Shown in pieces: positions 27,176 to 46,084 of a stretch of DNA of 64,000 nt. The notes under the pieces were generated by a model. The model was not told the origin of the DNA. It was given only the letters and a program-made list of their open reading frames with translations, and did no database searches. The stretch is from Metallibacterium scheffleri. Its GTDB lineage: Bacteria > Pseudomonadota > Gammaproteobacteria > Xanthomonadales > Rhodanobacteraceae. Location: the NCBI RefSeq assembly GCF_002077135.1, contig NZ_LDOS01000002.1, positions 1,240,001 through 1,304,000 on the forward strand. Reading direction: 5' to 3'. Each line of letters opens with the position of its first letter. The stretch's first letter is position 1. Made by a program: the position numbers and the translations under genes.

Positions 27176-27299
27176 TGGCAAACCTCCGTCGTGGGAAAGA
27201 CTCATGGCGGGGCATGGTACGCCGCTATCAAGCCAACGTCATGGTCCGGAGCAAATGGCCGCGCATGCTATAGTCCTTGACGATTTGGACGGCCAAACG

Positions 27300-29196: not shown

Positions 29197-29225
29197 TTGG
29201 CCTGGCGCATCACGAGACGCAGTAC

Positions 29226-29822
29226 ATGCAGCTCTATCTCAGCCCCACGTCCCCGTTCGCGCGCAAGGTCAAGGTCGCGCTGCTGGAAATGGATTTGCCG
29301 TTCGAGGAAATCCGCGTCGATCCGTGGGCCACGCCACCCGCACTGGCGGCTGTCAACCCGCTGTCGCAAGTACCCACCCTGGTCAGTGACACCGGCCTTG
29401 CGCTGGGCAACAGCGACACGATTCTGGCCTGGCTCATGAGCACGCATCCGAATCCCGGGCTGCTGCCGGTGACGGCGCCGGAACATGCGAGCGCATTGCG
29501 CCATGGCGCGATCGCGCAAGGCATGCTCGAGGCGACGGTGCAGATCGTGCTGGAGCGGCGACGCACACCGGGACAGCAATCCGCGGCGCTGATCGAGCGC
29601 CGCAAGGCCAGTCTGCAGCGCAGTGTGGCAGCGCTGGAACACGAGTTCACCGCGAGCCGCGCGACATTTCCGCTGGATGCCATCGGCGTCGCCGTGGCTC
29701 TGGCTTACCTCGATTTTCGCTTGCCCGAATATCACTGGCGCAAGGACGCCATGCGCCTGTCCGCATGGCAGATCTGGGCTGCAGCGCGTGCTTCCATGCA
29801 GGCCAGCGCACCACCAGCCTGA
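29226..29822 (+). CDS. Glutathione S-transferase-like protein
   Basis: 198 residues. An N-terminal thioredoxin-fold half (MQLYLSPTSPFARKVKVALLE, with the SPFARKV active-site region, and NPLSQVPTLV with the cis-Pro) is followed by a helical C-terminal half. The presence of Ser/Pro-Phe at the active site suggests a bacterial serine/cysteine GST class. It lies 29 bases after mtnC and may be transcribed with it. The substrate is unknown; detoxification is the usual family role. Confidence 0.85.
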   Translation: MQLYLSPTSPFARKVKVALLEMDLPFEEIRVDPWATPPALAAVNPLSQVPTLVSDTGLALGNSDTILAWLMSTHPNPGLLPVTAPEHASALRHGAIAQGMLEATVQIVLERRRTPGQQSAALIERRKASLQRSVAALEHEFTASRATFPLDAIGVAVALAYLDFRLPEYHWRKDAMRLSAWQIWAAARASMQASAPPA

Positions 29823-29831
29823 CCTGAAATT

Positions 29832-30449
29832 TCAGCGTCCGGCGTGACGCAGGGCCAGCGTGGCGGCCACGTCATCCAGGCCCAGCCCGCGCGCGCGCAG
29901 CAGCACGATCAGGTGATAGACCAGATCGGCCGCCTCGCCCAGCAGTGCGTCGTCATCCTGCGCCACCGCCGCCAGCGCGGTCTCGACGCCCTCCTCGCCC
30001 ACCTTCTGCGCGATGCGGCGCACGCCGCCCTCGAACAAGCGCGTGGTGTAACTGTCCTGCGGGCGGGCGCGCTCACGCTCGGCGATCAGCGTATCGAGCT
30101 GACCGATGAAGGCCAGCGCAGGCGCGGCGGCGGCGAAACACGTATCGCTGCCGAGATGGCAGGTCGGCCCCTGCGGCAAGGCCAATGCAAGCAGCGTGTC
30201 GCGGTCGCAATCGGCATGCAGCGCTTGCAGCTCCAGTGTGTGACCCGAAGTCTCGCCCTTGGTCCACAAGCGCTGCTTGCTGCGGCTGTAAAACGTCACC
30301 TTGCCGCTGTCCAGCGTGACCTGCAGCGCCGCGCGGTTCATGTAACCGAGCATCAGCACGCGGCCATCGCGGGCATGCTGCACGATGGCCGGCAGTAGGC
30401 CGTCGCCCTTGCTCCAGTCCAGTTGCCCGGGATCGAATGCACTGTTCAT
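29832..30449 (-). CDS. hisI: Bifunctional phosphoribosyl-AMP cyclohydrolase/phosphoribosyl-ATP pyrophosphatase
   Basis: Second and third steps of histidine synthesis in one polypeptide (HisI-HisE fusion, often named hisIE). About 205 residues. The cyclohydrolase half shows [23 protein letters not shown] and the zinc-binding Cys/His region DCDRDT...GPTCH. The pyrophosphatase half begins after about residue 118 and shows [17 protein letters not shown] and [13 protein letters not shown]. It is the last gene of the his operon, overlapping hisF as ATGA, and is convergent with the GST gene. Confidence 0.96.
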
Positions 30450-31216
30450 GGACGTACCTCGATGCCAGCCGTGGCCAGCGCCAGCTTGAGTTGGGGAATC
30501 GCCACGACGCCGCCATGGAACACACTGGCCGCGAGCGCGGCATCGACATCGGCGGTGCGAAATACATCGATGAAATGCGCGACAGCGCCGGCGCCACCCG
30601 AGGCCACCAGCGGCACCCGGCACAGCACGCGCGCAGCCTGCAGTTGCTCGATGTCGTAGCCGCTGCGCACGCCATCGCTGCCCATGCAATTGAGCACGAT
30701 CTCACCAGCGCCGCGCTGCTGCGCCTCGACGATCCAGTCCAGCGTGCGTCGTGGCAGCGCGCGGGTCTGCGCGGGATCGCCCGCATTGACGCGCACGCGC
30801 CATTCGCCGTCGTCGTCACGCAGGCTGTCGATACCCACCACCACGCACTGCACGCCAAAGGCCGCGGCCAGTTGATCGATCAACTCGGGCCGCTCCAGCG
30901 CCGGCGAGTTCACCGAGATCTTGTCCGCGCCCGCGTGCAGCAGCACGCGCGCATCCGCGACACTGCGGATGCCACCGGCCACGCAGAACGGAATATCCAG
31001 TTCACGCGCCACGCGTTCGACCCACGCCGCCTCCGCGCGGCGCCGCGACGGACTGGCGGTGATGTCGTAGAACACCAATTCGTCGGCACCGGCATCGCGG
31101 TACCGCCGCGCCAACTCGACAATGTCGCCCATGTCGATGTGGTCGCGAAAGCGTACGCCCTTGACCACACGGCCAGCGCGCACATCGAGGCAGGGAATGA
31201 TGCGCCGGGTCAGCAC
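30446..31216 (-). CDS. hisF: Imidazole glycerol phosphate synthase, cyclase subunit
   Basis: TIM-barrel subunit that uses ammonia from HisH to form imidazole glycerol phosphate and AICAR. 256 residues with [15 protein letters not shown] (catalytic Asp 11), VVVGIDS (second catalytic Asp) and [14 protein letters not shown]. It starts with GTG at 31216, overlapping the hisA stop by seven bases. The HisH partner is two genes upstream, as in the enterobacterial order. Confidence 0.96.
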
Positions 31217-31938
31217 ACCAGCGCCTCGCTCAGGTTGAAGCGGCCATCAAGCAACGCGCGCCCGAGAATCACCGCCGCCGCACCCGCGGTGCGTGCGGCA
31301 CGGATGTCATCAAGATCGCGCACGCCGCCCGATGCCTGCACGCCCACCTGCGGCGCACGCTCGGCCAGATACCGGTACAGGTCGATGTTGAGCCCGTCAA
31401 GCATGCCATCGCGCGCGATGTCGGTGCACAGCACATGACGCGCGCCCGCCGCGGCGTAGACGCTCGCGCGTTCATCCAGCGTGACGGCTTCGGCCCGTGT
31501 CCAGCCCGCGCTGGGCAATTGCCAGACGCCCTGGTCTTGGCGTGCATCCAGCGCCAGGACCAGGCGCTCCGCGCCGAAGTCGCGCAGCCAGCGCCGCACC
31601 GTTTGCGGATCGCGCACGGCGATGCTACCGATGACCACGCGTGCGGCGCCGGCATCGAACAGGCGCTGCACGTCCGTCGCGGTACGCACGCCGCCGCCAG
31701 CCTGCACGGACAGCCCGCAGCGCGCCAGCGCTTCGAGCAACGGCAACTGGGTGAAGCCACCCGCGCGCGCGCCGTCCAGATCGACCACGTGCAACCAGTG
31801 CGCGCCGGCATCGCGGTAGGACTGCGCCAGATCCAGCGGCGCGATCTGGTAGCGCGTCTCGCGTGCGTAGTCGCCCTGGCGCAGGCGCACCACGCCGCCG
31901 TCGCGCAGGTCGATCGCGGGAATGATCGTGAAATTCAT
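31210..31938 (-). CDS. hisA: ProFAR isomerase
   Basis: Amadori isomerase of histidine synthesis, a (beta-alpha)8 barrel paralogous to HisF. 242 residues with [20 protein letters not shown] (catalytic Asp 8), [10 protein letters not shown], and the [12 protein letters not shown] and [12 protein letters not shown] phosphate loops. The start at 31938 overlaps the hisH stop as ATGA. Confidence 0.96.
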
Positions 31939-32540
31939 AGGCTGATGAAATTCCGCAGCAGGCGCGCGCCCACCGCGGCCGAGCGCTCGGGATGAAACTG
32001 CATGCCGCAGACGTTGCCCTGGCGCACCACGGCGCTGAACATTGCGCCATGCGTCGCACTGGCCAGCGTGCATGCACCCGGCTGTGCGGCATAGCTGTGC
32101 ACGAAATAGGCGTAGGCCGGGTGCGGCATGCCCGCAAGCAACGGGTCATCGCGCAATGGCGTCAGCGCGTTCCAACCCATGTGCGGTACGCGCACATGGT
32201 CATCACCGGCAAGTCGGCCCACCCTGCCCGGCAGCAATCCAAGACACGGCGTGTCGCTTTCCGCGGAATGCTCGAACAGGAGCTGCATGCCCAGACACAC
32301 ACCCAGCATCGGCTGGCGCAGCGCGCGCAGCACCTCAACCAGTCCCGCATCGCGCAGGCGCTGCATGCCCGGCGCGGCGGCGCCGACGCCTGGCAGGATC
32401 ACGTGACTGGCGGCGCGGATGCGCGTGGCGTCGCTGCTCAGCCTGGCATCCACGCCAAGTCGCTGCAGCGCGTAGCGCAGCGAGCCGATATTGCTGCCGC
32501 CGGCATCGACCAGCACCACATCGGGCACCCCTGCGCTCAC
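31935..32540 (-). CDS. hisH: Imidazole glycerol phosphate synthase, glutaminase subunit
   Basis: Class-I glutamine amidotransferase that feeds ammonia to HisF. 201 residues with DAGGSNIGSLRYAL, the nucleophile loop LGVCLGMQLLFEHS, HMGWNAL and the catalytic FHPERS. GTG 32540 overlaps the hisB stop as GTGA; internal GTGs exist but this start gives the normal family length. Confidence 0.95.
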   Translation of the reverse strand: MSAGVPDVVLVDAGGSNIGSLRYALQRLGVDARLSSDATRIRAASHVILPGVGAAAPGMQRLRDAGLVEVLRALRQPMLGVCLGMQLLFEHSAESDTPCLGLLPGRVGRLAGDDHVRVPHMGWNALTPLRDDPLLAGMPHPAYAYFVHSYAAQPGACTLASATHGAMFSAVVRQGNVCGMQFHPERSAAVGARLLRNFISL

Positions 32541-33658
32541 AGCATGCCCTTGGTACTGGGCAGAATGTCGCCCTCGCGGCGCAGTGCCATGCGCAAGGCG
32601 CGCGCCACCGCCTTGAAGCAGATCTCGACCATGTGGTGTGCGTTCGCGCCGCGCACTTCCAGGTGCAGCGTGGCTCCCAGCGTGTCGCAGAGCGAGCGGA
32701 AGAAGTGCGGTACCAGTTCGGTGGGCAGGTCGCCCACATGCTCGCGCGGGAAGCTGCCGCTGAACACGAACCATGGCCGTCCGGACAAATCCAGCAGCGC
32801 CGTCGCACTGGCCTCGTCCATCGGCAGGCGCACGCGCACCGCCTGCGCCGTGACCGCGTCCGCACCGGCCGCGACCTCGGCGTCGCCGTAACGGCCGATG
32901 CCACGCTTGTCGCCCAGCGCCTGGCGCAGCGCCTGCCCCAGCGCCAGCGCGCAGTCCTCGACGGTGTGGTGCTCGTCAACGGCCAGATCGCCGGCTGCAT
33001 CGATCTCGAGCGCGAAACCGCCGTGCTTGCCGATCTGCTCGAGCATGTGGTCGAAATAACCCAGCCCCGTGCGCACGCTGGGCGCTGCCTCGCAGTCCAG
33101 ATCCACGCGCACGCGGATGCGGGTTTCGCGCGTATGCCGCTCGACCGATGCCACGCGTGGCGCATCGCACAGCAGGTGCGCGACCTGCTTCCAGGTCATG
33201 CCGTGTACGCCCATGCGCAGACCGCGCACACCGAGGTTGGCGGCAAGTTGCAGATCGGTTTCGCGATCGCCGATCACGGCCGAGGCGGCACGGCTCCAGC
33301 CATCATCGGCCAGATAATGACGCAGCATACCGACGCCGGGTTTGCGCGTATCCAGCCCTTCGCCTGGAAAACTGCGATCGATCAGCACTTCGCGAAAGGC
33401 GATGCCCTGCGAGGACAAAATTTGCAGCAGTAACGCCTGCGGACCAGCAAAATCAGATTCTGGAAAGCTGGCCGTACCGAGGCCATCCTGATTGCTGACC
33501 ATGACCAGATCGAAACCCGCTGCCACGCAGCGCTGCAGCGCGACGATGACGTCAGGCATCAGCGCGAATTTCTCGAACCTGTCGACCTGTTCGTCGACAG
33601 GTTCCTCGATCAGGCAACCATCGCGATCCACGAACAGGATTTTGCGTGCACCGCTCAT
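32537..33658 (-). CDS. hisB: Bifunctional histidinol-phosphatase/imidazoleglycerol-phosphate dehydratase
   Basis: 373 residues. The N-terminal HAD phosphatase has DRDGCLIEEP, VMVSNQDGLG and VIGDRETDLQLA. The C-terminal dehydratase has RVRVDLDCE, GLGYFDHMLEQIGKHG, DEHHTVEDCALALG and EICFKAVARAL with HHMVE. The phosphatase loop before TRKPGVG reads LIDRSFPGEGLD and lacks the CxH...CxC zinc cysteines of E. coli HisB, a variant known in Xanthomonadales. ATGA overlap with hisC. Confidence 0.96.
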   Translation of the reverse strand: MSGARKILFVDRDGCLIEEPVDEQVDRFEKFALMPDVIVALQRCVAAGFDLVMVSNQDGLGTASFPESDFAGPQALLLQILSSQGIAFREVLIDRSFPGEGLDTRKPGVGMLRHYLADDGWSRAASAVIGDRETDLQLAANLGVRGLRMGVHGMTWKQVAHLLCDAPRVASVERHTRETRIRVRVDLDCEAAPSVRTGLGYFDHMLEQIGKHGGFALEIDAAGDLAVDEHHTVEDCALALGQALRQALGDKRGIGRYGDAEVAAGADAVTAQAVRVRLPMDEASATALLDLSGRPWFVFSGSFPREHVGDLPTELVPHFFRSLCDTLGATLHLEVRGANAHHMVEICFKAVARALRMALRREGDILPSTKGML

Positions 33659-34731
33659 GCCGCAGCCTCGTCGCGCGCAGCCGCTGCGAGCAAGGCCAGC
33701 GCGCGATTGTTCTCCTCGGACAAGCCGATGCTCAGGCGCAGGAATCCGGCGAGCTGGGCATGGCGCCCGATATCGCGCAGCAGCACACCCTGCGCGAGCA
33801 GGCGCGCACACACCGCAGGCGCCGCATCCATGGCGAAGGCAATGAAGTTGGCGCGCGAGGGCAATACCTTGCGCACGCCAGGTATCAACGCCAAGGCAGC
33901 GGCGATGCGCTCGCGTTCGAGTCGCGTCGCGGCAATGCGCGCTGCGGTCTGTGCCTGCGCAGCAGGCTCCAGCGCGGCTAATGCCGCTTGCACGCTGGGC
34001 GTGGGCAGCGGATACGGCGCCATGATTCGCCGTAGCAGCGCGATGACCTCGGGTGCCGCCAGCAGCGCGCCGATGCGCGCGCCAGCCAGCGCCCAGGCTT
34101 TCGAGAGGGTGCGCAATACGCCGAGATTCTCGTAGCGATCCAGCAGCGTCGCGACGCTGGCCGCCTGCGCGTATTCGATGTAAGCCTCGTCCACGATCAG
34201 CAGCGCACGCCCACCGAGAGCTTCCGCCAGGCGCTCGATGTCGGTCGGAGCCACCAGGCCACCACTGGGATTGTTGGGCGAACATACGAACACCAGTTTC
34301 ACCGCGGGTGTCAGCGCGGCCAGCACGGCCTCGATGTCGAGCGAGAAGTCCGCACGCAGCGGCACTTCCACGATCGCCACATCCTGCGTGTGCGCACACA
34401 CCGCGTACATGCCGAAGGTCGGTGGCGAGATCAGCACCGCATCCGCGCCCGCGCGGCAGAAAGCACGCGTGAGCAGGTCGATGGCCTCGTCGCTGCCGCG
34501 CCCGACCAGAATCTGCTCGGCGCGCGCTCCGTAAAGCCGCGCCAGCGCATCGATCAGCGCGCGTGGCTGCGGCTCCGGATAGCGATTGAGGCCGCGCCCT
34601 GCGTCCTGCGGCGGCGGCCATGGCGACTCGTTCGCATTGAGGAAAATCGCGCCGCCCTGTGCCTCCATGCGCGCCGAGGAATACGGCGCCAGCGCCACGA
34701 TCTCGGGCCGCGCCAGATCCAGCACACTCAT
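33655..34731 (-). CDS. hisC: Histidinol-phosphate aminotransferase
   Basis: PLP enzyme of histidine synthesis, 358 residues. Visible are [10 protein letters not shown] near the N-terminus, [22 protein letters not shown] (PLP Asp/Tyr), the Schiff-base lysine in [14 protein letters not shown], and a C-terminal [12 protein letters not shown] with the substrate Arg. The start overlaps the hisD stop as ATGA. Confidence 0.96.
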
Positions 34732-36038
34732 GGCGCCGCGTCCGCAAGCAATTCAAGACGCAGGCTGACCGCGCGTGCGTGCGCCTCCAACCCCTCGGCG
34801 CGCGCCAGCGTGATCGCGCAGGGGCCGATGCCGCGCAGGCCCTCGCGATCCAACTCCTGCACGGTGATCTGCTTCTGGAAACTGGCCACCGAGACGCCAC
34901 TCCACGCGCGCGCATGGCCATCGGTGGGCAGCACGTGATTGGTGCCGCTGCAGTAATCACCCACCGATTCGGGTGACCATGCACCAAGAAACACCGAGCC
35001 GGCACTGTGTACCGCCGCCAGCAGCGCATGCGGCGCGCGCACCTGCAGAATCAGATGTTCGGGTGCGTAGTCGTTGCTCACCGCGACGGCCTGCGCCAGA
35101 TCCTGCACCTGGATGGCACGGCTGGCCGCCAGCGCCTGGAGCGCGATGGCCGCGCGCGGCAGCAACGCGCATTGGCGCATGACCTCGGCCTGTACCGCGG
35201 CAATCAGCGCCGCACTGGGCGCGACCAGCAGTACCTGCGAATCGGGGCCATGCTCGGCCTGCGACAGCAGATCGGCGGCAACGATGCGCGCATCGGCCGC
35301 GGCGTCGGCGATCACCAATACTTCGGATGGACCGGCGGGCATGTCGATGGCGGGGCCGCCGGGCAAGGCCGCGACCTGCTGCTTGGCCTCGGTGACCCAG
35401 GCGTTACCCGGCCCGAACAGCTTGTCGCAACGCGGCACGCTGGCGCTGCCCAGCGCCAGCGCGGCGATCGCCTGCGCGCCGCCCAGCTTGAACACACGCC
35501 GCACACCGCAGCGGCGCGCCGCATGCAATACGGCCGCATCGCAACGCCCGTCGCCACGCGCTGGTGTGCAGATCACCACTTCCGGACAACCGGCAAGCCG
35601 CGCGGGCACGGCCAGCATCAGTACCGTCGAGGGAAGTGGCGCACTGCCCGCCGGCACATAGAGACCAACCCGCGTGATCGGCCGCAGCATGCGCTCGCAG
35701 ACCACGCCAGGCGCCGTCTGCACGCGTGCCGGTTGCGGCGCGGTGGCGGCATGGAACTGCTCGATGCGCGCGGCGGCCTCGGCGATCGCGGTTTTGAGCG
35801 TGGTGTCGAGTACGGCCTCGGCGGCGTCGAACTCGGCGTCGCTGACTTCCAGCACATCCAGTGTCACGCCATCGTGACGGCGCGTGAGCAGGCGCAGCGC
35901 GGCGTCGCCATCCGCGCGCACCTGTTCGATGATGCGCGCCACGCCGTCGCGCACGGCGGCGCTGCGCGCGCGCACCGGGCGCTGCAGTGCTTGCACGCGC
36001 TGCGCGGCGCTCAAATCGTTCCAGATCAGACTTTGCAT
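34728..36038 (-). CDS. hisD: Histidinol dehydrogenase
   Basis: NAD-dependent four-electron oxidation of histidinol to histidine, the last two pathway steps. 436 residues with [42 protein letters not shown], the zinc-site [11 protein letters not shown] and [16 protein letters not shown]. Separated by 21 bases from hisG, the only real gap in the operon. Confidence 0.97.
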
Positions 36039-36059
36039 GAGGATGGGCTTCCGCGATCG

Positions 36060-36959
36060 TCAGGCCAGCATTTTTTCCACCGGCAACACCAGCATCGAGC
36101 TGGCGCCAGCGCGCTTCATGTCTTCCAGGTGCTGCCAGGTGATCGCGCCATGACACACCGCCTGCAGCGCCACCTGATCCTTGCGTCCTTCGATCGGCAG
36201 CAGGATCGGCACACTGCCATGCGGCAGAATGCGCCCAATCGCATCGAGCGCCGAGCGCGGCGCATGCAGCATCACCAGCTTGGACTCACGCACCTGGATC
36301 ACACCATCGATGCGCCGCAGCAACAGCTCGATCATCTCGGCACGCGCGTCCGCGGGCAGCACGGCAGGCACCGCCAGAACCGCCTCGCTGTCCAGCAGCA
36401 CCGCCACTTCCCTGAGCTGATTCGCGGCCAGCGTGGCGCCGCTGGACACCAGGTCGCAGATCAAGTCGGCGGTGCCCAGGCGCGGCGCGATTTCCACCGA
36501 ACCGGACAGCGTGACCACGCGCGCGCGCACGCCCTGCGCGCCCAGCCAGTGCTCCAGCAGCGCCGGATACGTGGTGGCGATGCGCAAATCCTGCAACTGC
36601 TGCGCGCCACTCCATTCCTGTTCATGCGGAATCGCCAGCGCCAGCCGGCACTGGCCAAAACCCAGCGTGCGCAACGCGCGAAATCCGGGCTCGCGGTGCA
36701 CGGCGATGGCGGCCAAGCGCTGTTCCTCAAGCACGTTGCTGCCAACCACGCCGAGATCGCACACACCTTCAGCGATCATGCCCGGGATGTCGTCGTCACG
36801 TACCAAAAGCAGATCGATCGGCAGCGTCTCGCCGAAGCAGAACAGCTTGTCGCGGCTCTGCCGGAACTTCAGTCCGCAACGCGCCAGCAGGTCCTGCGAA
36901 GGCTCGGCCAGGCGCCCCGACTTTTGCACCGCGATGCGCAGGCGATCGCGCGGCTTCAC
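36060..36959 (-). CDS. hisG: ATP phosphoribosyltransferase, long form
   Basis: First committed step of histidine synthesis and the feedback-regulated one. 299 residues, the long form with a C-terminal ACT-like regulatory domain (about 225-299), so no HisZ is needed. Seen are [27 protein letters not shown] and the PRPP loop [14 protein letters not shown] (about 169-182). It starts with GTG at 36959, overlapping the hisR stop (GTGA). A truncated near-identical copy occurs at 39402-39909. Confidence 0.96.
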
Positions 36960-37375
36960 GCCCGCACCTCAGGCGAACGCCGCGGCCGAATTGGCTTCGC
37001 GCTGGTGTTCGTGACACGCAGCGCATTGCCCTGTTCCCTGCTCGCGCCAATTGCACGGCGCGGCTTGCGCGCATGCTGCGCGCGCGCGACCGCGGCCAGA
37101 TAGCCACCGTTGCCCTGGTTGAGATAACGCGCCACGCGCCCGATGGTGGTGATGCTCACCGCGGTCAGCTCATGGATTTCCCGGTATGGCGTGGCTGTCA
37201 GCAGGTGCGGCACCACCGACCAGCGATCGACCAGCGCTTCGACCTCAGCCGGGGTGCACAGATCGCGCAGGAAATCCCGCATCTCGGCCACGGTACGCAT
37301 GCTCAACAGGGCGCGGCACAGGCTTTCCTCGGTTTGCGTCCGCGGCTGCCGCGGTTCGATGGATCGACGTTTCAT
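36956..37375 (-). CDS. hisR: HisR, TrpR-family repressor of histidine biosynthesis
   Basis: 139 residues with the TrpR/YerC-like core: [34 protein letters not shown], then the helix-turn-helix [21 protein letters not shown] and GNGGYL. TrpR-type regulators heading histidine operons in Xanthomonadales are called HisR and use histidine as probable co-repressor. It is followed by a Lys/Arg/Pro-rich tail. ATG 37375 is ten bases from a palindromic operator, implying autorepression of the whole his operon. A paralogue with its own operator lies at 39906-40364. Confidence 0.85.
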
Positions 37376-37384
37376 GATTGCATT

Positions 37385-37408
37385 CACGTACTATCACATT
37401 AGTACGCA
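37385..37408 (-). promoter_or_regulatory. HisR operator overlapping the -10 of the his operon
   Basis: CGTACTA-TCACAT-TAGTACG: perfect 7-base arms with a 6-base spacer, ten bases before the hisR ATG. On the minus strand it contains TACTAAT, a good -10 hexamer, so a bound repressor would block RNA polymerase. The same 24-bp site, but fully palindromic, precedes the hisR paralogue at the identical distance. The half-site resembles the ACTAG core of TrpR operators. Confidence 0.75.
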
Positions 37409-37775: not shown

Positions 37776-39296
37776 ATGAACCGTTCGCCTCGCCTGCGCC
37801 CGCTGGTTTGCGCGTTGCTGCCCGCCTTATGCTGCCTGGGCAGCACCGCTGCCGTCGCCGGCACGCGCGTGCCCATGCTGCCACCCGGCAATGCTTTGAA
37901 TCCGCAAAGTCCGTTCGCCACGCTATACCTGCCGGAAAACCTGCCCAGCGCCGCGGACGCCAGCGTCGGCCCCAGCGCGTGGACGCACGCCTACGGCAGC
38001 CCGCAGCATAATGCCGCATTCCCGCTGCCGGCCTCGGCACCGCTGTGGGCGCGTGCCGGCGTGCACTGGAACTTTCCCGAGGCGCGCGCATGGCCGCTGA
38101 GCGATGACAAGCCCTTTGGCGCCGGGGTCTACGGCATCAAAGAAGCGCTGCCGGTGCAGACGCAGTTCTACGGCAATGCACTGGGCGTTTCGGTGGTCGG
38201 CGGCGTGGTGTTCGCCGAAAGCGACGACATGTTCGCCTACGCCATCAACGCGCATACCGGCAAACTGATCTGGCGCAGCAGCCCGGTGGGCAACACGCTG
38301 ATGGGCAACCCGCTGGTCGTGGGCGACAAGGTGTACCTGTCGGCCGGCAATGTCGGCTTCAATTTCGCCAACGTGATGCGCTTCAAGAACAACCCCGCCA
38401 GCGCCGGACGCGGCGTCAACATCAGCTACAACGGCATCTATGCCATGGACCGCAAGACCGGCGCATTGGACTGGTATTTCCCCACGCGTGGCGACGCCAT
38501 GCCGACGCCTGCCTACGATGCGGGACGCCTGTTCATCACCACCGGCAACGGTAGCGCGGTGTGCATCGACGCCACCAACGGCGCGCTGATCTGGCGCAAC
38601 CACCTGGGTGGCATCGCCAACATGTCCAGCCCGGCGGTGGCCGATGGCCGCGTGTATGTGGCCATGTCGGTCAAACCCTTCCTGTACGCGCTGGATGCGC
38701 GCACCGGCAAGGTGCTGTGGCGCGGCACCATCCCCGGCGCGGCCAACACCGGCATGGGCGATGTCTCGCCGGCGGTCAGCGACGGCATCGTGGTGCAGGA
38801 TGCCGTGGCCAATCCCATGGACATCGCCGGCAAACCCACGCTGGAAACCCTGGTGCGCGCCTTCGACGCCAGCACCGGCAAGGTGCTGTGGACCTACGAC
38901 ATGGGTCGGGGTCACAAGGTGCCGGCGTTCAAGGGCGGCGTGCCGATGATCCACGACGGCGTGGTGTACGTCGGCAGCCCGGTCACCTCGGCCTACGTCG
39001 CGCTGAATCTGAAAACCGGCAAACCCTACTGGCGCTGGCCGGTGCCCAACGCCGGTGCCGCTGGCGCCGGGCGCGGCGCCCCCACGTACTATGCGGGCAC
39101 GCTGTACGTGGCCACCGGGCCGAATCTGTACGCGCTGAATCCGAAGACCGGCCGGGAACTGCATAGCGTGCACGTCGGTGGCCGCTTCGGCATCGTCAAT
39201 CCGACCATCGTCGGCGGCACGATCTACCTGGGCAACTCATGGGACTGGGTCAATGCCGTGCCGCTGCGCGAGGTGAATCCGGCCGCGCATCCCTGA
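37776..39296 (+). CDS. Periplasmic PQQ-like beta-propeller protein
   Basis: 506 residues with a signal peptide (about 1-28, ending AAVAG). At least six quinoprotein-type blades follow, each with the A-x-D/N-x-x-T-G-K-x-x-W pattern: [87 protein letters not shown]. It may be a dehydrogenase-like quinoprotein, a BamB-like scaffold, or a member of the tetrathionate-hydrolase-like propellers, which have similar size and location; the sequence alone does not decide. Its 3' end overlaps, antisense, the end of the truncated hisG frame by 47 bases. Confidence 0.75.
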
Positions 39297-39909
39297 CACT
39301 CGCCGCAGACCCGGCAGACAATCGCCAGCCGGCGTCGCACTCGCGCGCGGCGTTGAGCGTGTCGCGGCGGTAATCCAGCGCCTGCGCGGCGGTGTACAGC
39401 AAATCACAGATCAGATCGGCGGTGCCCAGCCGCGGCGCGATTTCCACCGAACCGGACAGCGTGACCACGCGCGCGCGCACGCCCTGCGCGCCCAGCCAGT
39501 GCTCCAGCAGCGCCGGATACGTGGTGGCGATGCGCAAATCCTGCAACTGCCGCGCGCCACTCCATTCCTGTTCATGCGGAATCGCCAGCGTCAGCCGGCA
39601 CTGGCCAAAACCCAGCGTGCGCAATGCGCGAAATCCGGGCTCGCGGTGCACGGCGATGGCGGCCAAGCGCTGTTCCTCAAGCACGTTGCTGCCAACCACG
39701 CCGAGATCGCACACACCTTCGGCGATCATGCCCGGGATGTCGTCGTCACGTACCAAAAGCAGATCGATCGGCAGCGTCTCGCCGAAGCAGAACAGCTTGT
39801 CGCGGCTCTGCCGGAACTTCAGTCCGCAACGCGCCAGCAGGTCCTGCGAAGGTTCCGCCAGCCGTCCGGACTTCTGCGCCGCGATGCGCAGGCGCTCGCG
39901 CGGCTTCAT
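39250..39909 (-). pseudogene. Truncated hisG copy fused in frame to an ammonia-lyase fragment
   Basis: The frame starts at ATG 39909 with 170 residues almost identical to HisG (about four substitutions: D5E, V11A, A108T, Q120R). Immediately after DLICDL it switches to [19 protein letters not shown], which matches residues 522-540 of the ammonia-lyase at 42373-44259, then ends in 30 unrelated residues. The junction removes the PRPP-binding [11 protein letters not shown] loop and the regulatory domain, so the product cannot be an active ATP phosphoribosyltransferase. It is still open and coupled (ATGA) to hisR paralogue 39906-40364, so it may be expressed. Confidence 0.85.
39345..39400 (-). repeat. 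56-bp ammonia-lyase gene fragment, direct repeat of 42642-42697
   Basis: The two 56-bp segments differ at three positions only and have the same orientation. They flank a 3.3-kb segment holding the hisR/hisG copies, the HNH gene and the DUF4160/DUF2442 pair. Recombination between them would delete that segment. Confidence 0.85.
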
Positions 39910-40364
39910 GCCGGCACCACGGTTGCGCGGCGCGGCTTGCCCGGCTTCGTGCTCGCGCCCGTGGCGCGGCGTGGCTTGCCGGATTTCGTGCTCGTGTCCA
40001 CCGCACGGCGCGACAGGCACGGTTCAAGATTCACGCCTGCTGCACGGCGCGGCCGGCGCGACTGCTGCGCGCGCGCCGCCGCCGCCAGATAGCCGCCGTT
40101 GCCATGGTTGAGGTAGCGCGCCACGCGGCCGACGGTGGTGATGCTGACCGCGGTCAGGTCGTGGATCTCGCGGTACGGCGTCCCCGCCAGCAGATGCGGC
40201 ACCACCGACCAGCGGTCCACCAGCGCCTCGACCTCGGCCGGCGTGCACAGATCGCGCAGGAAGGCGCGCATCTCGCCCACGTCGCGCATGGCCAGCAGCG
40301 CGCGGCACAGGCCCTCCTCGGCCAGGGCACGCGGCTGCAGCGGTTCCAGCGAGCGCCTCTTCAT
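39906..40364 (-). CDS. Second HisR-type TrpR-family regulator with repetitive basic tail
   Basis: 152 residues. The TrpR-like core (residues 1-108) is about 82% identical by eye to HisR at 36956-37375, with the [24 protein letters not shown] almost unchanged. The tail differs: two 13-residue basic units ([11 protein letters not shown] and [11 protein letters not shown] type) encoded by a 39-bp tandem repeat. Its own perfect 24-bp operator lies ten bases upstream. It is followed by the truncated hisG rather than by a complete operon, so it may act in trans on the his operator. ATG 40364 mirrors the hisR start. Confidence 0.8.
39922..39999. repeat. Two-unit 39-bp tandem repeat in the second hisR tail
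   Basis: Units 39922-39960 and 39961-39999 differ at a handful of positions and encode the Lys/Arg/Pro-rich 13-residue motif twice. The corresponding region of hisR at 36956-37375 has only a degenerate version. Confidence 0.8.
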
Positions 40365-40373
40365 CGTTGCTCT

Positions 40374-40397
40374 CACGTACTAATGCATTAGTACGTG
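40374..40397 (-). promoter_or_regulatory. Perfect 24-bp palindromic HisR operator
   Basis: The left half CACGTACTAATG is followed by its exact reverse complement. It includes the TACTAAT -10-like hexamer in the minus direction and sits ten bases before the start of the second hisR, the same geometry as at 37385-37408. It differs from that site at five of 24 positions, all in the centre or at one end. Confidence 0.8.
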
Positions 40398-40571
40398 ATG
40401 CTAACCGATGGAAGGGACGGGCTGCAAGCCCGACAGCTGCTGGGCAACGCGAGCGAGGCGCCGCTGACTGCGTCAGCTATGGAACTACCTGATTGACGCC
40501 ATGCAGCGCAAGGATGAACATCCTGCGCTACACCCCGGTTCTGGGGTCTACACTTGTTGGACGTCTTGACC

Positions 40572-41501
40572 GTGAAGTTCGAGCTCACAACCTTGGAGGA
40601 ATACAGCGATGAAGCGCTTCTCGCCGAGCTTCGTCGCGTCGCTGCCATCGTTAAAACGCCGAAGCTCACCATCAGTCAGTTCAGCTCCATCGCAAAGGTC
40701 CACGGCTCCACGCTACAAAAGCGATTTGGCGGTTGGAAAAAAGCCTTGAAAGTCGCGGGCCTCAGCGAACGAATCGACAGCGGCAACGTCGCCAAGTCCC
40801 TGGACGAAGCTCTAAAGGCCATCGCAAGAGCGGCACAAGAGCTTCAGAAGAGCGTCCTGACGCTTCAGGAATTTGAAGCGCACACAGGAATTTCAGGTGC
40901 GTCGGTGCGCCGGCACTTCGGCTCGTGGAGAAAAGCGCTTGAAGCAGCGGGCCTGAACCAGTCGCTCCTCGGGCGCCGATATACGGACGAGGAGTGTTTT
41001 GAAAACATCCTTACGCTGTGGACTCACTATGGACGCCAACCGATATTTGGCGAACTCAAACGGCCGCCCTCCGTAATGGGACCAAAAGCTTATGTCCGTC
41101 GTTGGGGCGGCTGGCGAGCGGCACTCGCAGCCTTTGTGAGGCACGTCAAGGAGGCGCCGGAGTTGCCCCAGCAAATCGAAACGGCCAAACCTTCAAAAGT
41201 TGAAGCCCAAGAACCGAACGCTGGCGGCGCACCACGCTCTATCAGCCTCGCCCTGCGCTACAGAGTACTGACGCGCGACAAGTTCAGATGCGTAACATGT
41301 GGTGCTTCCCCTGCAAAGGACGTAGCCGTTGAGCTGCATGTGGACCACATTCATCCGTGGTCGCGCGGCGGTCAAAATACGGAGAAGAATCTGCGCACGC
41401 TCTGTTTCAAGTGCAACCTCGGAAAAGGGGCAACGGTTGAAGACGCCCAACAAGGTGCTCCAGTCGACGGTCCACTTGCTGCACTCGTGGCTCGCGGCTG
41501 A
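40572..41501 (+). CDS. HNH endonuclease with homing-endonuclease-associated repeats
   Basis: 309 residues from GTG 40572 (KFELTTLEEYSDEALLAELRRVA); TTG 40554 is an alternative. Three repeat units with the FGGWKKALKVAGL / FGSWRKALEAAGL / WGGWRAALAAF signature are DNA-binding repeats found with homing endonucleases. The C-terminal HNH domain is complete: FRCVTCGASP, ELHVDHIHPWSRGGQNTEKNLRTLCFKCN, with two CxxC zinc pairs and the catalytic DH and N. It is less GC-rich than its neighbours. It may be a solitary mobile nuclease or a defence-type nuclease. No intron or intein context is seen. Confidence 0.8.
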   Translation: MKFELTTLEEYSDEALLAELRRVAAIVKTPKLTISQFSSIAKVHGSTLQKRFGGWKKALKVAGLSERIDSGNVAKSLDEALKAIARAAQELQKSVLTLQEFEAHTGISGASVRRHFGSWRKALEAAGLNQSLLGRRYTDEECFENILTLWTHYGRQPIFGELKRPPSVMGPKAYVRRWGGWRAALAAFVRHVKEAPELPQQIETAKPSKVEAQEPNAGGAPRSISLALRYRVLTRDKFRCVTCGASPAKDVAVELHVDHIHPWSRGGQNTEKNLRTLCFKCNLGKGATVEDAQQGAPVDGPLAALVARG

Positions 41502-41609: not shown

Positions 41610-42053
41610 TTACGCCGCTTTCGCGGCCCAGCGTGCCGACAAGGCCTCGCACGCCAAGGCGACGACGTGCGGAATGGGGCGACTGCCGGTGCGGTAATGG
41701 GCCATCGTGCGGCGGCTCAGGCCGAGTGCCTCGGCGGCAGTATTCAGCGATAGATCGTGCCGGGCCATCCACGCGGCAAAGCGCTCGGGGCCCCATTCGC
41801 CCGCCTGCTCCCGCGCCATCTCGTAGAGCGGGTCGGCGCCCATGTCCACGTCGCCCGGCCACTGCACGGCATGACCCCAGGCATCGGCCTTGGCCTTGCG
41901 GAAATGCGCCGGGTCGCGCAGCGGCCCGTAGAGCTTGTAGCGCCTGACCAGACGCGACACGTCCACCGGCAGGGTCTCGCCGGTGCTCCATGTGATGACG
42001 AGCGTCAGCGGCGGCTGCGCCTTGACGGCACGGATCAGGGGCGGCTTGTTCAT
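41610..42053 (-). CDS. DUF2442-HTH fusion protein, putative antitoxin
   Basis: 147 residues. The N-terminal half (PPLTLVITWSTGETLPVDVSRLV...LYGPLRDPAHF) is a DUF2442 domain. The C-terminal half ends in a helix-turn-helix (LSLNTAAEALGLSRRTMAHYRTGSRPIP). Such proteins are usual partners of DUF4160 and are predicted antitoxins/autoregulators; here DUF2442 and the DNA-binding domain are in one chain. ATG 42053 overlaps the DUF4160 stop as ATGA. Confidence 0.8.
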   Translation of the reverse strand: MNKPPLIRAVKAQPPLTLVITWSTGETLPVDVSRLVRRYKLYGPLRDPAHFRKAKADAWGHAVQWPGDVDMGADPLYEMAREQAGEWGPERFAAWMARHDLSLNTAAEALGLSRRTMAHYRTGSRPIPHVVALACEALSARWAAKAA

Positions 42054-42280
42054 CGCACGATCTCCTTCCACTTTGCCAGCAGCATCGCCGGGTTCGCTTC
42101 GATCCAGGCCATGGCCAATGCGAGTCTGGCGGCCGGCCGTATCGTGCCCGACACCTTCAGCGACTCGATCTCGACCGTGCAGCGGCTGCCGTCGCGGAAC
42201 TCCACGTGGACATGCGGCGGTCGATGATCACGCGGATAGATCGCGACATGACAATCGGCGAACTGCCTGAGCTTTGGCAT
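42050..42280 (-). CDS. DUF4160 protein, putative toxin partner
   Basis: 76 residues with the full family signature: IYPRDHRPPHVHVEF, the DGSRCTVEIESLKVSG middle and a C-terminal ALAMAWIEANPAMLLAKWKEI. DUF4160 genes are almost always next to DUF2442 genes and the pair is treated as a candidate toxin-antitoxin system; biochemical function is not established. It is first in the two-gene unit and divergent in spirit from the HNH gene on the other strand. Confidence 0.8.
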   Translation of the reverse strand: MPKLRQFADCHVAIYPRDHRPPHVHVEFRDGSRCTVEIESLKVSGTIRPAARLALAMAWIEANPAMLLAKWKEIVR

Positions 42281-42372
42281 GACTGATCATGGTGCAATAA
42301 ATTCACCATGTCAACGAAGGCGGACAGCATCAGGCGAAGCCAAGCCCGACGTGGGCGCGCACCTGCCCCGCC

Positions 42373-44259
42373 TCAGCCCAACCCCCGCCCCGCCAGCGCC
42401 ACCATCCGCGCGATGTCGCCATCCATGGCGCGGTCGCGCGGCATGAAGGCGACTTCGCGACGGATGGCCTCTAGCGCGCGGGCGACGGCAGCACCGGGGC
42501 GAAACTCGGGCGCACCGGCCAGGGCCTGCATCAGCGCGCGGGCCTCCTGCTCGAACTGCGCATGCTGCGGGTGGCCGGGCTCGGGCGCGCCGCCGATCTT
42601 GGCGGCCAGCGCGCGCCAGTCGCCGTGCCGCGCCAGTCGCCGCGCGGCATTGAGCATGTCGCGGCGGTAGTCCAGCGCCTGCGCGGCGGTGTACAGCTCC
42701 AGCGCCAGTACCTGCCCCAGCTGTTCGCACATCGCCAGCACGTGGCGCGCCTCGTTGGCGCCCATCGACACGTGGTCTTCGGCGTTGGCGCTGGTGGGTA
42801 TGGAGTACACGCTGGCCGGATGCGCGCGGCTGGCCAGGTCGTTGACCAGGGCGGCGGCGGTGTACTGCACGATCATGAAGCCGGAATCGGTGGCGTCCTC
42901 GTTGCCGGTGAGGAAAGCCGGCAGGCCGTCGTTGGTGGCGGGATCGACCAGCTTGGCGATGCGGCGCTCGCTGATCGAGGCCAGCACCGGGATGGCGGCT
43001 TTGACGTAGCTCATCGCCAGCGCCAGCGGCATGCCGTGAAAATGACCGGCGGAGACGACCTGATCCTCGATCACCTGCGCGCCCTCGACATCGGGAAACA
43101 GCAGTGGGTTGTCGGTGACGGCGTTGAGTTCGATCTCGATGACGCGCGCGGCCTGCGCCAGCGCGTCGCGCACCGCGCCATGCACCTGCGGGATGCAGCG
43201 CAGGCTGTAGGCGTCCTGCGGCTGGTGCTTCTTGCCGCCGCGAAACGGCAGGAAGCGCGTGTAAAACGCCTCGCGGCCGTGGCGGCGCTGCACCGGCACC
43301 CAGTCCCAAGACAGATCGAAATGCAGGGCCTGGTCCTCGGGCTCGCGCCAGGCCTGCGCCGTCCATGTCGCGAAATGCGGCACCAGGTGGTAGGGGATGT
43401 CGATCAAGGTCGAGCCGGCCAGCAGCTCGCGCAGATGCGCGGCGGTCTCGACCTGGCCGGGATGCGGGCGCAGCGCGTGCACGTCTTCACGGAACGCGCC
43501 GCTGCGGCCGGCGAAGGCCTCCAGGGTCATCGCCGCGGCGAGATCCGCCAGCTCGACCTGCTGCTGCAGCCGGTCCAGCGCCAGCGCCGCGCAGGCCAGC
43601 ATTTGCGCGGTGCCGTTGTTGAGCGCGAGGCCCTCCTTGTACGACAGCCGCACGGGTTCGAGCCCGGCGCGACGCAGGGCCTCGGCACCGGGCAGGCGCT
43701 CGCCCGCGAAGAACGCCTCGCCGCCGCCCAGCAAGACGATGGCCAAGTGCGACAGCGGCGCCAGATCACCGCTGGCGCCGACCGAACCCAGTTGCGGAAC
43801 CACCGGCACCACGCCGCGATTGAGCATCGCGGTCAGGGCCTCCAGGGTTTGCACGCGCACGCCGGAGTGCCCGCGCATCAGGGTGTTGATGCGGATCGCC
43901 AGCATCGCGCGCACCACGTCGGGTGCGAACGGCTCGCCGACGCAGACGGCGTGGGTGACGATCAGGTTGTGCTGCAGCTCCTCGAGCAAGCTGCCCTCGC
44001 GCGTCTCCGGATTGCCGCCCGGCAGCTCGTCGCGCGCGCGATGCGCGCCCAGCAGTTTGTCGGCGTTGCTGCCGAAGCCGGTGGTGACACCGTAGATCGG
44101 CTCGCCGCAACGCACCTTGTCGGCCAGAAAATCGGCGGTGCGGCGTACGCGCTGCAGCGCCGCGGCATCCAGTGCCACCTGCGCGCCGTCGCGGGCGATG
44201 GCCAACAGACCGGCGCGGCTCAGGCCGTAGCCGTCCAAAAGAACTTTCTTTGAAGTCAC
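42373..44259 (-). CDS. Aromatic amino-acid (histidine-type) ammonia-lyase, long form
   Basis: 628 residues of the HAL/PAL/TAL family, which eliminates ammonia using the autocatalytic MIO group. The MIO triad is in GSVGASGDLAPLSH (162-165), the active-site Tyr in IYGVTTGFG (56), and NNGTAQ and QDAYSLRCIPQVHG are present. The selectivity pair reads Thr-His (LIVTHAVCVG, about 102-103), close to the Ser-His of histidine ammonia-lyases. It is about 110 residues longer than HutH, partly through an insertion of about 60 residues at roughly 285-347. No other hut genes are nearby, so the role (histidine breakdown or a pigment/phenylpropanoid branch) is open. It overlaps the small upstream gene by ATGA. 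Confidence 0.88.
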   Translation of the reverse strand: MTSKKVLLDGYGLSRAGLLAIARDGAQVALDAAALQRVRRTADFLADKVRCGEPIYGVTTGFGSNADKLLGAHRARDELPGGNPETREGSLLEELQHNLIVTHAVCVGEPFAPDVVRAMLAIRINTLMRGHSGVRVQTLEALTAMLNRGVVPVVPQLGSVGASGDLAPLSHLAIVLLGGGEAFFAGERLPGAEALRRAGLEPVRLSYKEGLALNNGTAQMLACAALALDRLQQQVELADLAAAMTLEAFAGRSGAFREDVHALRPHPGQVETAAHLRELLAGSTLIDIPYHLVPHFATWTAQAWREPEDQALHFDLSWDWVPVQRRHGREAFYTRFLPFRGGKKHQPQDAYSLRCIPQVHGAVRDALAQAARVIEIELNAVTDNPLLFPDVEGAQVIEDQVVSAGHFHGMPLALAMSYVKAAIPVLASISERRIAKLVDPATNDGLPAFLTGNEDATDSGFMIVQYTAAALVNDLASRAHPASVYSIPTSANAEDHVSMGANEARHVLAMCEQLGQVLALELYTAAQALDYRRDMLNAARRLARHGDWRALAAKIGGAPEPGHPQHAQFEQEARALMQALAGAPEFRPGAAVARALEAIRREVAFMPRDRAMDGDIARMVALAGRGLG

Positions 44260-44558
44260 GCTGAGTGTCCCTCCGAGTCAACGTTCGGCGGCTGTGCGGG
44301 GAGCCGGGGTACTTCCATGGGTCTGCCCCAAGCGGTTCTGGCGATCTCGTCGAAGTGCCTCAGCACGCGTTCGCTATGGGAATCACGGTGATGGAACACC
44401 CAGCGAGCGACCACGATCCGGTGATCGGAATGACTCATCTGGCCGCGTGCCATGGCGTCATAGTCTCCGAGCCATGGCGCCTGCGCTTCCAACCCATCGA
44501 ACTCGCAGCCGACAGCCTTGTCTTTCAGCAGGGCACCGCACGCGGCACAGATTTCCAC
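44256..44558 (-). CDS. Small CxxC hypothetical protein coupled to the ammonia-lyase gene
   Basis: 100 residues of unknown function. It begins MEICAACGALLKDKAVGCEF, with one CxxC pair and a further Cys that could bind a metal, followed by a His-rich central part (SHSDHRIVVARWVFHHRDSHSERVLRHF). No transmembrane segment. It starts 12 bases after hisS and overlaps the lyase gene by four bases, so it is probably in one transcript with both. An alternative is a decayed fragment of a larger protein. Confidence 0.55.
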   Translation of the reverse strand: MEICAACGALLKDKAVGCEFDGLEAQAPWLGDYDAMARGQMSHSDHRIVVARWVFHHRDSHSERVLRHFDEIARTAWGRPMEVPRLPAQPPNVDSEGHSA

Positions 44559-44570
44559 GAGGAGTCGTCC

Positions 44571-45956
44571 TCAGCCCATCACCTGGGCCTGCTCCAGCTC
44601 CACGCGCAGGGTCCTGACCAGCTCGCCGCGCGCGACCTCGAACTGCTCTTGCTTGCGCATGTCCTTGAGCGTGACCACGCCCTTGGCCTGCTCGTCCGGC
44701 CCCAGCACGGCGACGAAGCGCACGCCGGCGCGGTCAGCGTGCTTGAACTGTTTCGCCAGCTTGCCCGGCTCCATCACCACCTCGGTGGCGATGCCGGCAT
44801 TGCGCAGTTGCGTGGCCAGTTCCAGATAGGCTGGCAGTTGCGCCTCGTCCATCATCGTCACCAGCACCTGCACCGTGCTGCTGGCCGCGCCCAGCAAGCC
44901 TGCCTCGCGCAGTTGCCAGAACAGGCGCGTGGCGCCGATGGAAATCCCCACGCCGGGCAAGTGCGAGGTGGTGTAGTTGCCGGCCAAGTTGTCATAACGC
45001 CCGCCGGAGCAGATCGAGCCGATCTGCGGATGCTCCAGCAGGTGCGTTTCGTATACGGTGCCAGTGTAGTAATCCAGCCCGCGCGCGATGGACAGGTTCA
45101 GCGCGTAGTGCGATTCGGGCACACCAAAGGCGCGGATCAGCTGCAGCACTTCCTTGAGTTCGCTGCGACCTTGCTCGAACAGGTCGCCACCGCCTTCGAG
45201 CGCATCCAGCCGCGCCAGCGCATCGGCATGCGAATGCGAGCGCACCTCGACGAATGCCATGATGCGCGCCACGGCCGCATCTGACAGCCCCAGCGGTGCG
45301 CCGATGAGCGTGGCGCGCACCGCTTCGGCGCCGCGCTTGTCGAGCTTGTCGACCTCGCGCAGCACCAGCATCTGCTGATCGCTGGTCACGCCCAGACTCT
45401 CGAAGTAGCCGCGCATCAGCTTGCGGTTGTTGAGCTGGATCTGGAACGGCCCGATGCGCAAGTCGCGGAATACGCTGTGAATCACCGCCGGCATCTCGGC
45501 GTCGTAGCGCACCGACAGACGATCCTTGCCGATCACGTCGATGTCGCACTGGTAGAACTCGCGAAAACGCCCGCGCTGCGCACGCTCGCCGCGATACACC
45601 CGCTGGATCTGGTAGCGGCGAAATGGAAAGCTCAAGTCGCGTTCGTGCTCGGCCACATAGCGTGCCAGCGGCACAGTGAGGTCGAAGCGCAACGCCAGTT
45701 CGGGCTTTTCGTCTGCGTCCCTGTCAAGTGCACTCAATGCACCGGTGGACTGCACGAAATACACTTGGCGCTCGGTCTCGCCGCCTTGCTTGGTCAGCAG
45801 GATGTCGGCGAACTCGATCGCCGGGGTCTCGATCGGCAGAAATCCGAAGCGCTGAAAATTGCCACGGATCGTATCGAGCATGTCCTGAAACGCGATCTGC
45901 TCGGGTGGCAGCAGTTCCAGCACACCGGGCATGGTGCGGGCAAGCGTGAGCGTCAT
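44571..45956 (-). CDS. hisS: Histidyl-tRNA synthetase
   Basis: About 461 residues, class-II aminoacyl-tRNA synthetase. Motif 2 is [32 protein letters not shown]; the histidine-specific segments are [11 protein letters not shown] (HisA) and [10 protein letters not shown], with motif 3 [12 protein letters not shown] and an anticodon-binding C-terminal domain. The start at 45956 ([17 protein letters not shown]) fits the family; an in-frame extension to 46070 is not conserved-looking. It groups with the longer HisRS type. The neighbouring genes also concern histidine. Confidence 0.95.
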
Positions 45957-46084
45957 CGTGGGTTCGCTGGCGGTCGTGGAATGGCGCGCCAGTTTAGCGG
46001 ATTGCACCGCCGCGCCCGCGCCGCGAAGCATCGTGGCGGCTTGCGGCAGGCGCGGTGGCGCTTGTATCATGCGCGGCCTTTCGT

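What the first reader, a model, noticed from the sequence alone, without database searches (positions are those of the whole stretch)
39250..39909. Truncated hisG fused in frame to an ammonia-lyase fragment
Residues 1-170 are about 98% identical to HisG 60 codons-for-codons upstream in the window, then the frame passes directly into 19 residues of the ammonia-lyase located 2.5 kb away. The break falls just before the PRPP-binding loop. A single product combining both is unlikely to be an enzyme, but it is still open and coupled to a regulator gene. It marks a recombination event between histidine-synthesis and ammonia-lyase DNA.
Basis: seen in the sequence. Interest (0 to 1): 0.72.

Follow-up and report, generated by a model that had tools for sequence, protein, structure and literature searches.

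The report
Scar of imported neighbour-species DNA
A broken second copy of a histidine-synthesis gene, joined to a scrap of a neighbouring gene, is most likely the seam left where DNA from a related bacterium was pasted beside the resident version of the same locus; it is probably not a working new enzyme.

Summary
The fusion is real in the sequence. hisG' (39400-39909, -) encodes residues 1-170 of HisG (165/170 identical to the intact HisG at 36060-36959), then 19 residues of the neighbouring ammonia-lyase gene in frame, then 30 unrelated residues. It lacks the PRPP loop and the C-terminal domain, so it should be dead as an enzyme. The locus is a tandem of two versions of one neighbourhood (lyase - cargo - hisR - hisG) that occur singly in congeners. 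Version A (lyase, DUF4160/DUF2442, HNH, hisR_A, hisG 1-170) resembles G009; version B (57-nt lyase stub, PQQ-repeat gene, hisR_B, intact hisG) resembles G012. The fusion is the seam, most likely where an imported A-type segment was joined almost without homology into the resident lyase gene. About 410 bp of the two hisG copies were later made nearly identical (407/411) by gene conversion, probably from the broken copy into the working one. The genome now has two divergent TrpR-family regulators, each behind its own palindrome. No congener searched showed the fusion. The processes are known; import direction is likely, not proven; no reads were available. A well-dissected example of modest interest.

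The parts
39400..39909 (-). hisG': codons 1-170 of HisG, version A; lacks the PRPP loop and the HisG_C domain
   Evidence: 165/170 residues identical to HisG; Pfam HisG profile positions 1-113 of 158 only, no HisG_C; seam
39343..39399 (-). 19-codon piece of the ammonia-lyase gene (from codon 522) fused in frame; probably the stub of the resident lyase gene, beside the PQQ-repeat gene as in G012
   Evidence: 54/57 nt to 42641-42697; position relative to L037
39253..39342 (-). 30 codons of tail: 39307-39342 unassigned, the rest over the PQQ-repeat gene's 3' end and 10 bp beyond; about 260 bp fewer than in G012 between PQQ stop and lyase piece
   Evidence: only 10-14-base chance-level matches of 39297-39345 in 12 relative loci
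39906..40376 (-). hisR_A: TrpR-family regulator, version A (G009-like), open, stop overlaps hisG' start
   Evidence: Pfam Trp_repressor 5.7e-20; core 310/328 to G009, 273/328 to G012
40376..40395 (.). 20-bp perfect palindrome upstream of hisR_A, HisR/TrpR-type operator candidate
   Evidence: pattern search of the genome finds two places only
40554..41501 (+). HNH endonuclease with homing-endonuclease-associated repeats, cargo of version A
   Evidence: Pfam HNH_repeat 1.3e-32, HNH 2.2e-13; 42%-identical gene in the same gap in G009
41610..42071 (-). DUF2442 + helix-turn-helix-like protein, cargo of version A
   Evidence: Pfam DUF2442 over cut-off, HTH_31 just under its cut-off; 95% identical in G009 in the same gap
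42050..42280 (-). DUF4160 protein next to DUF2442, cargo of version A
   Evidence: Pfam DUF4160 5.1e-12
42373..44259 (-). intact ammonia-lyase of the aromatic amino acid lyase family (HutH-like; substrate not determined), version A
   Evidence: Pfam Lyase_aromatic 8.6e-176; in 12 of 12 windows from 42370 to 44020 the best of G009/G010/G005 is above G012
37776..39296 (+). PQQ-repeat beta-propeller protein, cargo of version B
   Evidence: Pfam PQQ_2 5.1e-42; 95% identical in G012 in the same gap, no match in the G009 locus
37387..37406 (.). operator candidate upstream of hisR_B (imperfect palindrome)
36956..37387 (-). hisR_B: TrpR-family regulator, version B (G012-like), open
   Evidence: Pfam Trp_repressor 3.8e-21; core 290/328 to G012, 261/328 to G009
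36060..36959 (-). intact hisG, first enzyme gene of the his operon; version B with a converted tract
   Evidence: HisG and HisG_C domains; DLVSSGATL loop present
36485..36895 (-). gene-conversion tract shared with 39435-39845
   Evidence: 407/411 between the copies, 357/411 between G009 and G012; tests
44571..46070 (-). hisS (histidyl-tRNA synthetase), outer flank, 97-100% to G012 in nine 150-bp windows starting 44620-45820
   Evidence: Pfam

Best explanation
The fusion is the seam of an inter-species DNA import. The ancestor carried the G012-type version: hisS - lyase - PQQ gene - hisR_B - hisG - hisD. A segment of the G009-type version (lyase, DUF4160/DUF2442, HNH, hisR_A, hisG codons 1-170) came in, replaced the resident lyase gene by homology, and at its other end was joined with almost no homology into codon 522 of the resident lyase gene. 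The stub of that gene remained beside the PQQ gene and lost about 260 bp. The result is two versions in tandem. The truncated hisG' makes, at most, an inactive fragment from the hisR_A transcript; the resident hisG does the enzymatic work. Later a tract of about 410 bp was copied between the two hisG copies, probably from hisG' into hisG. Shown: the two versions, their affinities, the seam, the tract. Inferred: import direction, homology at one end only, direction of conversion, inactivity of the product. The odds given are for the whole statement with its direction; for a seam between two imported/resident versions in either direction I would say about 0.8.
For: Single-copy versions exist apart: G009 lyase-DUF2442-HNH-hisR-hisG and G012 hisS-lyase-PQQ-hisR-hisG. 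Where G009 and G012 differ in the hisR core, copy A agrees with G009 at 47 sites and G012 at 10, copy B 12 and 41. In the tree of that region (9 sequences) copy B and G012 split from the seven others with support 99, and copy A groups with G005, G009, G010 and G008 at 90. The last 15 bases of hisG' before the seam equal G009's. hisS is 97-100% to G012, hisC 96.5-99.5% and hisD 90-99.5% by 200-bp windows, while the lyase is closer to G009/G010/G005 in 12 of 12 windows. The lyase stub sits beside the PQQ stop, as in G012. Seam: 1-bp overlap by eye, 3/15 similarity before it, 9/14 after it. Conversion: 407/411 in the tract against 62-86% around it; at sites where G009 and G012 differ the copies differ at 2 of 54 inside and 57 of 103 outside, Fisher P=8e-12, none of 10,000 shuffles with as long a run of agreement; the tract in hisG is G009-like 37:14. 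Only G000 of 61 genomes has two hisG matches and only G000 of 13 genomes of the genus two hisR matches. ComEC one match, DprA two, Ku none.
Against: The 57-nt lyase piece differs from G012 at 5 sites but from the intact lyase and G009 at 3 each, so it is not specially G012-like. The genome background is only partly G012-leaning: of four 20-kb stretches searched, L156 mostly is, L153 is split, L155 is mixed, and L154 matches G009 in pieces and G012 hardly at all. Between lyase and hisS about 350 bp match none of the 7 relative loci that reach hisS, so the homologous anchor on that side is not seen. In the hisR core G009 and G012 differ from their counterparts here by 5.5% and 11.6%, so neither is the actual parent. 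hisG downstream of the tract agrees with G009 at 21 sites and G012 at 14, not clearly version B. Tract limits were set after seeing the data. No reads were available.
Confidence: 0.62

Rival explanations
1. Same two versions, opposite direction: the resident was G009-type, and a G012-type segment (lyase 3' end, PQQ, hisR_B, hisG, hisD, hisC) came in, anchored in the his operon and joined at its other end to codon 170 of the resident hisG.
For: Gives the same final order. G009-like blocks also occur in the background, and identity to G012 along the his operon rises and falls in blocks.
Against: hisS on the far side is 97-100% to G012, which would need a second import; L156 and part of L153 lean to G012.
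Confidence: 0.2
2. An internal tandem duplication from the lyase gene to hisG within one lineage made the seam, and the downstream copy was later overwritten by the other version.
For: A tandem duplication gives exactly a hisG|lyase joint; the lyase piece is slightly closer to the intact lyase than to G012.
Against: hisR copies are 81.7% identical in the core and fall on different sides of a split with support 99; cargo genes of the two halves are unrelated; needs an extra step.
Confidence: 0.12
3. Assembly artefact: two strains' versions joined in silico.
For: Both versions exist in separate genomes of the genus; estimated contamination of the assembly is 2.36%; no reads seen.
Against: Only a 1-bp overlap at the seam on which an assembler could join; about 260 bp missing next to it; a tract more alike between these two copies than to any of the seven congeners compared; the window lies inside a 2.1-Mb contig.
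Confidence: 0.05
4. hisG' is a retained functional piece, for instance a short HisG that assembles with HisG or is co-expressed with hisR_A as a regulator of histidine synthesis (not exclusive of an import origin).
For: The frame is open, coupled to an open hisR_A with its own operator candidate, and nearly identical to HisG over 170 residues.
Against: Openness and identity can follow from recent gene conversion; two of the four changes in the tract alter residues, one of them (codon 107, A to T) unique among the nine sequences compared; the active-site loop is absent; not found in other genomes searched.
Confidence: 0.05

Closest known systems
Homology-facilitated illegitimate recombination (PMC3240628, abstract and section list seen; Acinetobacter, Streptococcus and Pseudomonas stutzeri work seen only as cited in PMC5361080)
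   Same: Foreign linear DNA anchored by homology at one end and joined illegitimately at the other
   Different: Here inferred from a natural genome, with both ends homologous to the locus but joined out of register; the anchoring crossover is not directly seen
Accretion of effector-immunity modules with orphan immunity genes in Vibrio cholerae T6SS clusters (PMC5361080, passages read)
   Same: Incoming alternative version added beside the old one, leaving remnant genes; the same mechanism is proposed there
   Different: Here a core amino-acid biosynthesis neighbourhood, one event, and the leftovers are broken enzyme genes
Merodiploidy by transformation in Streptococcus pneumoniae (PMC3784515, abstract and section list seen)
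   Same: Transformation gives partial duplication of a chromosomal region
   Different: Those duplications are about 100-900 kb and arise through repeats
HisR, TrpR-family regulator of histidine genes (PMC9413887, passages read)
   Same: TrpR-family gene heading the his operon; 20-bp palindrome
   Different: Two divergent copies in one genome, one of them ahead of a broken hisG

Membership tests
ATP phosphoribosyltransferase HisG (for hisG') | Catalytic domain complete, including PRPP loop (loop identity recalled) | tested here: not met
   HisG profile ends at 113 of 158; DLVSSGATL present in HisG, absent in hisG'
ATP phosphoribosyltransferase HisG (for hisG') | C-terminal domain of the long form | tested here: not met
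   HisG_C only in the intact gene
HisR (TrpR family) | Trp_repressor domain and place just upstream of hisG | tested here: met
   Both copies; one copy there in each of the 11 relatives' loci examined
HisR (TrpR family) | 20-bp palindromic operator upstream | tested here: met
   Two places in the genome, one before each copy, with a pattern modelled on these sites; a site of a related strict pattern by hisR in 9 of 12 relatives' loci, none by it in G002, G013, G026
HisR (TrpR family) | Histidine-dependent DNA binding | not testable with these tools
   needs a binding assay
Product of homology-facilitated illegitimate recombination | Joint with minimal homology at one end | tested here: met
   1-bp overlap; 3/15 before and 9/14 after the joint; 1.8% of same-frame position pairs reach 9/14
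Product of homology-facilitated illegitimate recombination | Homologous anchor at the other end | tested here: inconclusive
   Affinity switches between lyase and hisS, but about 350 bp there have no match
Simple recent tandem duplication | Uniform identity of the copies along their length | tested here: not met
   99.0% in the tract, 81.7% in the hisR core, 62% in the hisR tail
Gene conversion tract | Near-identity bounded by divergent homologous sequence, beyond what conservation explains | tested here: met

The most novel reading that the evidence does not exclude
The lyase-hisR gap is a cargo hotspot in this genus, and the HNH endonuclease of version A cuts alleles that lack it, driving repeated import of neighbouring versions; the hisG'|lyase fusion would then be the scar of such a homing-like event, and the second his repressor a by-product that rewires histidine control.
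Probability: 0.1. Interest if true: 0.6.

Novelty: new member of a known kind. Interest (0 to 1): 0.3.

Why it matters
If right, it shows at base resolution how a core biosynthetic neighbourhood can gain a second, diverged regulator and new cargo genes in one import, how the seam produces an apparent chimeric gene, and how a dead imported copy can rewrite part of the working gene by conversion. It also warns against reading open in-frame fusions as new proteins without comparing relatives.

Tried and rejected
Rejected: a new bifunctional enzyme (no PRPP loop, 19 lyase residues only, not seen in other genomes searched). Rejected: simple recent duplication of hisG (uneven identity, regulator copies on different sides of a well-supported split). 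Set aside as evidence for a working protein: low dN/dS of hisG' (0.10 against HisG, 0.10 against G009), because conversion makes it uninformative.

Led nowhere: origin of 39307-39342 and of the stretch between lyase and hisS. The lyase piece is too short to assign to a version. One search (papers on displacement) gave nothing used; (phrases for truncated, pseudogene, fused, duplicated or partial hisG) listed two irrelevant papers; only the listings were seen, and these five phrases in this open-access library are the whole of my literature check for the fusion itself.

Flaws and rows left out: the hisS query was taken out of frame (3 stops set to X), so its identities there are not used; hisS statements rest on DNA, though its place in relatives is taken. 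In one search the rows for G005, G008, G002, G006 and G010 were out of register and are not used; one search gives their identities to the lyase piece (97, 91, 83, 91 and 97%). The nine-sequence alignment leaves out G013, G020, G026, G028, G011 and G001, which I also held; G001 was left out. Note 2 says an operator in 8 of 12 loci; the count is 9 of 12. Of 80 loci listed (of 174 found) I used only the titles.

Full report
What is there. On the minus strand at 39250-39909 an open frame begins as HisG and ends as something else. hisG' matches HisG over residues 1-170, 165 of 170 identical. The DNA match of the two copies reaches beyond hisG into the regulator gene upstream, 39386-40395 against 36436-37406, 851/1010. 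After nt 510 (39400) the frame enters codon 522 of the ammonia-lyase gene and follows it for 57 nt, 54/57 identical to 42641-42697, then leaves it for 30 codons that match neither gene. Pfam finds only HisG positions 1-113 of 158 in the product and no HisG_C; the loop DLVSSGATL of HisG is gone. That this is the PRPP loop is recalled, not tested.

The neighbourhood in relatives. I compared 11 loci from relatives. A lyase gene lies upstream of hisR-hisG on the same strand, within about 3.5 kb, in 8 of 11 (G009, G012, G005, G008, G002, G006, G010, G013; in G009 it is interrupted by other DNA); in G026 it lies 6.5 kb away, and in the 20-kb stretches of G028 and G020 it was not found. The gap between lyase and hisR varies: a PQQ-repeat gene in G012, DUF2442 and HNH genes in G009 and (HNH weakly) in G010, a DUF2442 remnant in G008, and none of the queried cargo in the others. 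G000 holds the G009-type and the G012-type gap contents in tandem, with the fusion between them.

Two versions. Where G009 and G012 differ in the hisR core, copy A agrees with G009 at 47 sites and G012 at 10; copy B with G009 at 12 and G012 at 41. A tree of that region with nine sequences splits copy B and G012 from the other seven with support 99; copy A groups with G005, G009, G010 and G008 at 90. In 12 of 12 lyase windows the best of G009, G010 and G005 exceeds G012, while hisS beyond is 97-100% to G012 in nine windows starting 44620-45820. hisC is 96.5-99.5% and hisD 90-99.5% to G012 by 200-bp windows. The lyase stub lies next to the PQQ stop, as the lyase 3' end does in G012, with about 260 bp fewer in between.

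Direction. I fetched five 20-kb stretches from elsewhere in G000 and searched four against G009 and G012. In L153 G012 is closer over the last 8 kb (94 against 86%), G009 over the first 4 kb (91 against 85% for G012's 10-kb block). L156 leans to G012 in most of its blocks (92-96 against 86-91%; two short blocks, 84-87 against 86%, do not). L155 is mixed (G009 94% over 13 kb; G012 93-96% over two parts of it and missing elsewhere). L154 matches G009 in pieces and G012 hardly at all. The background thus favours G012 only in part; the hisS and hisC flanks favour it clearly. Import of the G009-type segment into a G012-type resident is the likelier direction, not a proven one.

Seam. One base overlaps; before it hisG (G009) and lyase agree at 3 of 15 positions, after it at 9 of 14 (10 of 14 with the window's intact hisG); 1.8% of same-frame pairs of positions in the two genes reach 9 of 14. 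The joint is thus nearly homology-free, with at most a short similar patch. The genome has one ComEC and two DprA matches and no Ku match, which is compatible with uptake of DNA and gives no support for Ku-type end joining; it does not show competence.

Gene conversion. The copies share 407/411 bases between 36485 and 36895, but 81.7% in the hisR core, 62% in the hisR tail, 85.9% in the first 64 bp of hisG and 79.6% in the 49 bp next to the seam. G009 and G012 differ by 13% in the same tract, so conservation does not explain it. At sites where G009 and G012 differ, the copies differ at 2 of 54 inside and 57 of 103 outside, P=8e-12 (limits of the tract chosen after seeing the data); in shuffles, none of 10,000 gave so depleted a 411-bp stretch or so long a run of agreement. 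In a tree of the tract the two copies are neighbours (split support 81). The tract in hisG is G009-like (37:14) between short flanks that lean to G012 on few sites (3:5 and 2:4), while the rest of hisG is 21:14 towards G009; so copying from hisG' into hisG is likelier, not certain.

Regulators. Both hisR copies are open and carry the Trp_repressor domain. dN/dS of the copy A core against G009 is 0.05, which mainly reflects time before import. Each is preceded by a 20-bp palindrome, the only two places in the genome at up to 2 mismatches of a pattern modelled on them. This agrees with HisR as described in PMC9413887 (passages read), which reports HisR in Xanthomonadales and hisR as first gene of the his operon in the majority of Proteobacteria that have it. 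What a second HisR does here is untested.

Distribution. Of 61 genomes searched 58 have a hisG match and only G000 has two. With a 321-bp probe across the seam, no congener of 12 gave one match covering hisG and the lyase piece: hisG matches end at most 16 bases past the seam and lyase matches begin at it. Three of the 12 (G003, G004, G007; 72-87% complete) show no hisG at all, so absence there says little. Titles of related records (80 of 174 listed, the window's own genome possibly left out) are of Xanthomonadales-type bacteria, the closest ones metagenome assemblies; no tool named the genus of the window.

Comparison and verdict. The pattern is like homology-facilitated illegitimate recombination as summarised in PMC3240628 (abstract) and as proposed for V. 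cholerae arrays in PMC5361080 (passages); the homologous anchor was not seen here, so membership is not claimed outright. It is a clear natural example in a core biosynthesis locus, not a new kind of system.

Noticed in passing
L036 10813-12965: In G009 the lyase gene is interrupted: a piece between two YTAA-encoding repeats is missing and a gene that looks ATPase-like by eye sits inside. The deletion uses the same GCGGCGGTGTAC motif at which the window's fusion joins the lyase.
   Followed up: partly
39906-40060: The region of the C-terminal tail of hisR_A holds 39-bp-spaced direct repeats; tail length varies between relatives, and G008 has a similarly long tail.
   Followed up: partly
44217-44577: About 350 bp with a 100-codon frame between lyase and hisS, without match in the 7 relative loci that reach hisS.
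   Followed up: partly
24000-36100: Identity to G009 and G012 rises and falls in blocks along the his operon and beyond (e.g. 99% to G012 at 31400, 80% at 31800), suggesting frequent recombination in the genus.
   Followed up: no
36959: The intact hisG starts with GTG, while hisG' and the seven congener hisG sequences compared start with ATG.
   Followed up: no
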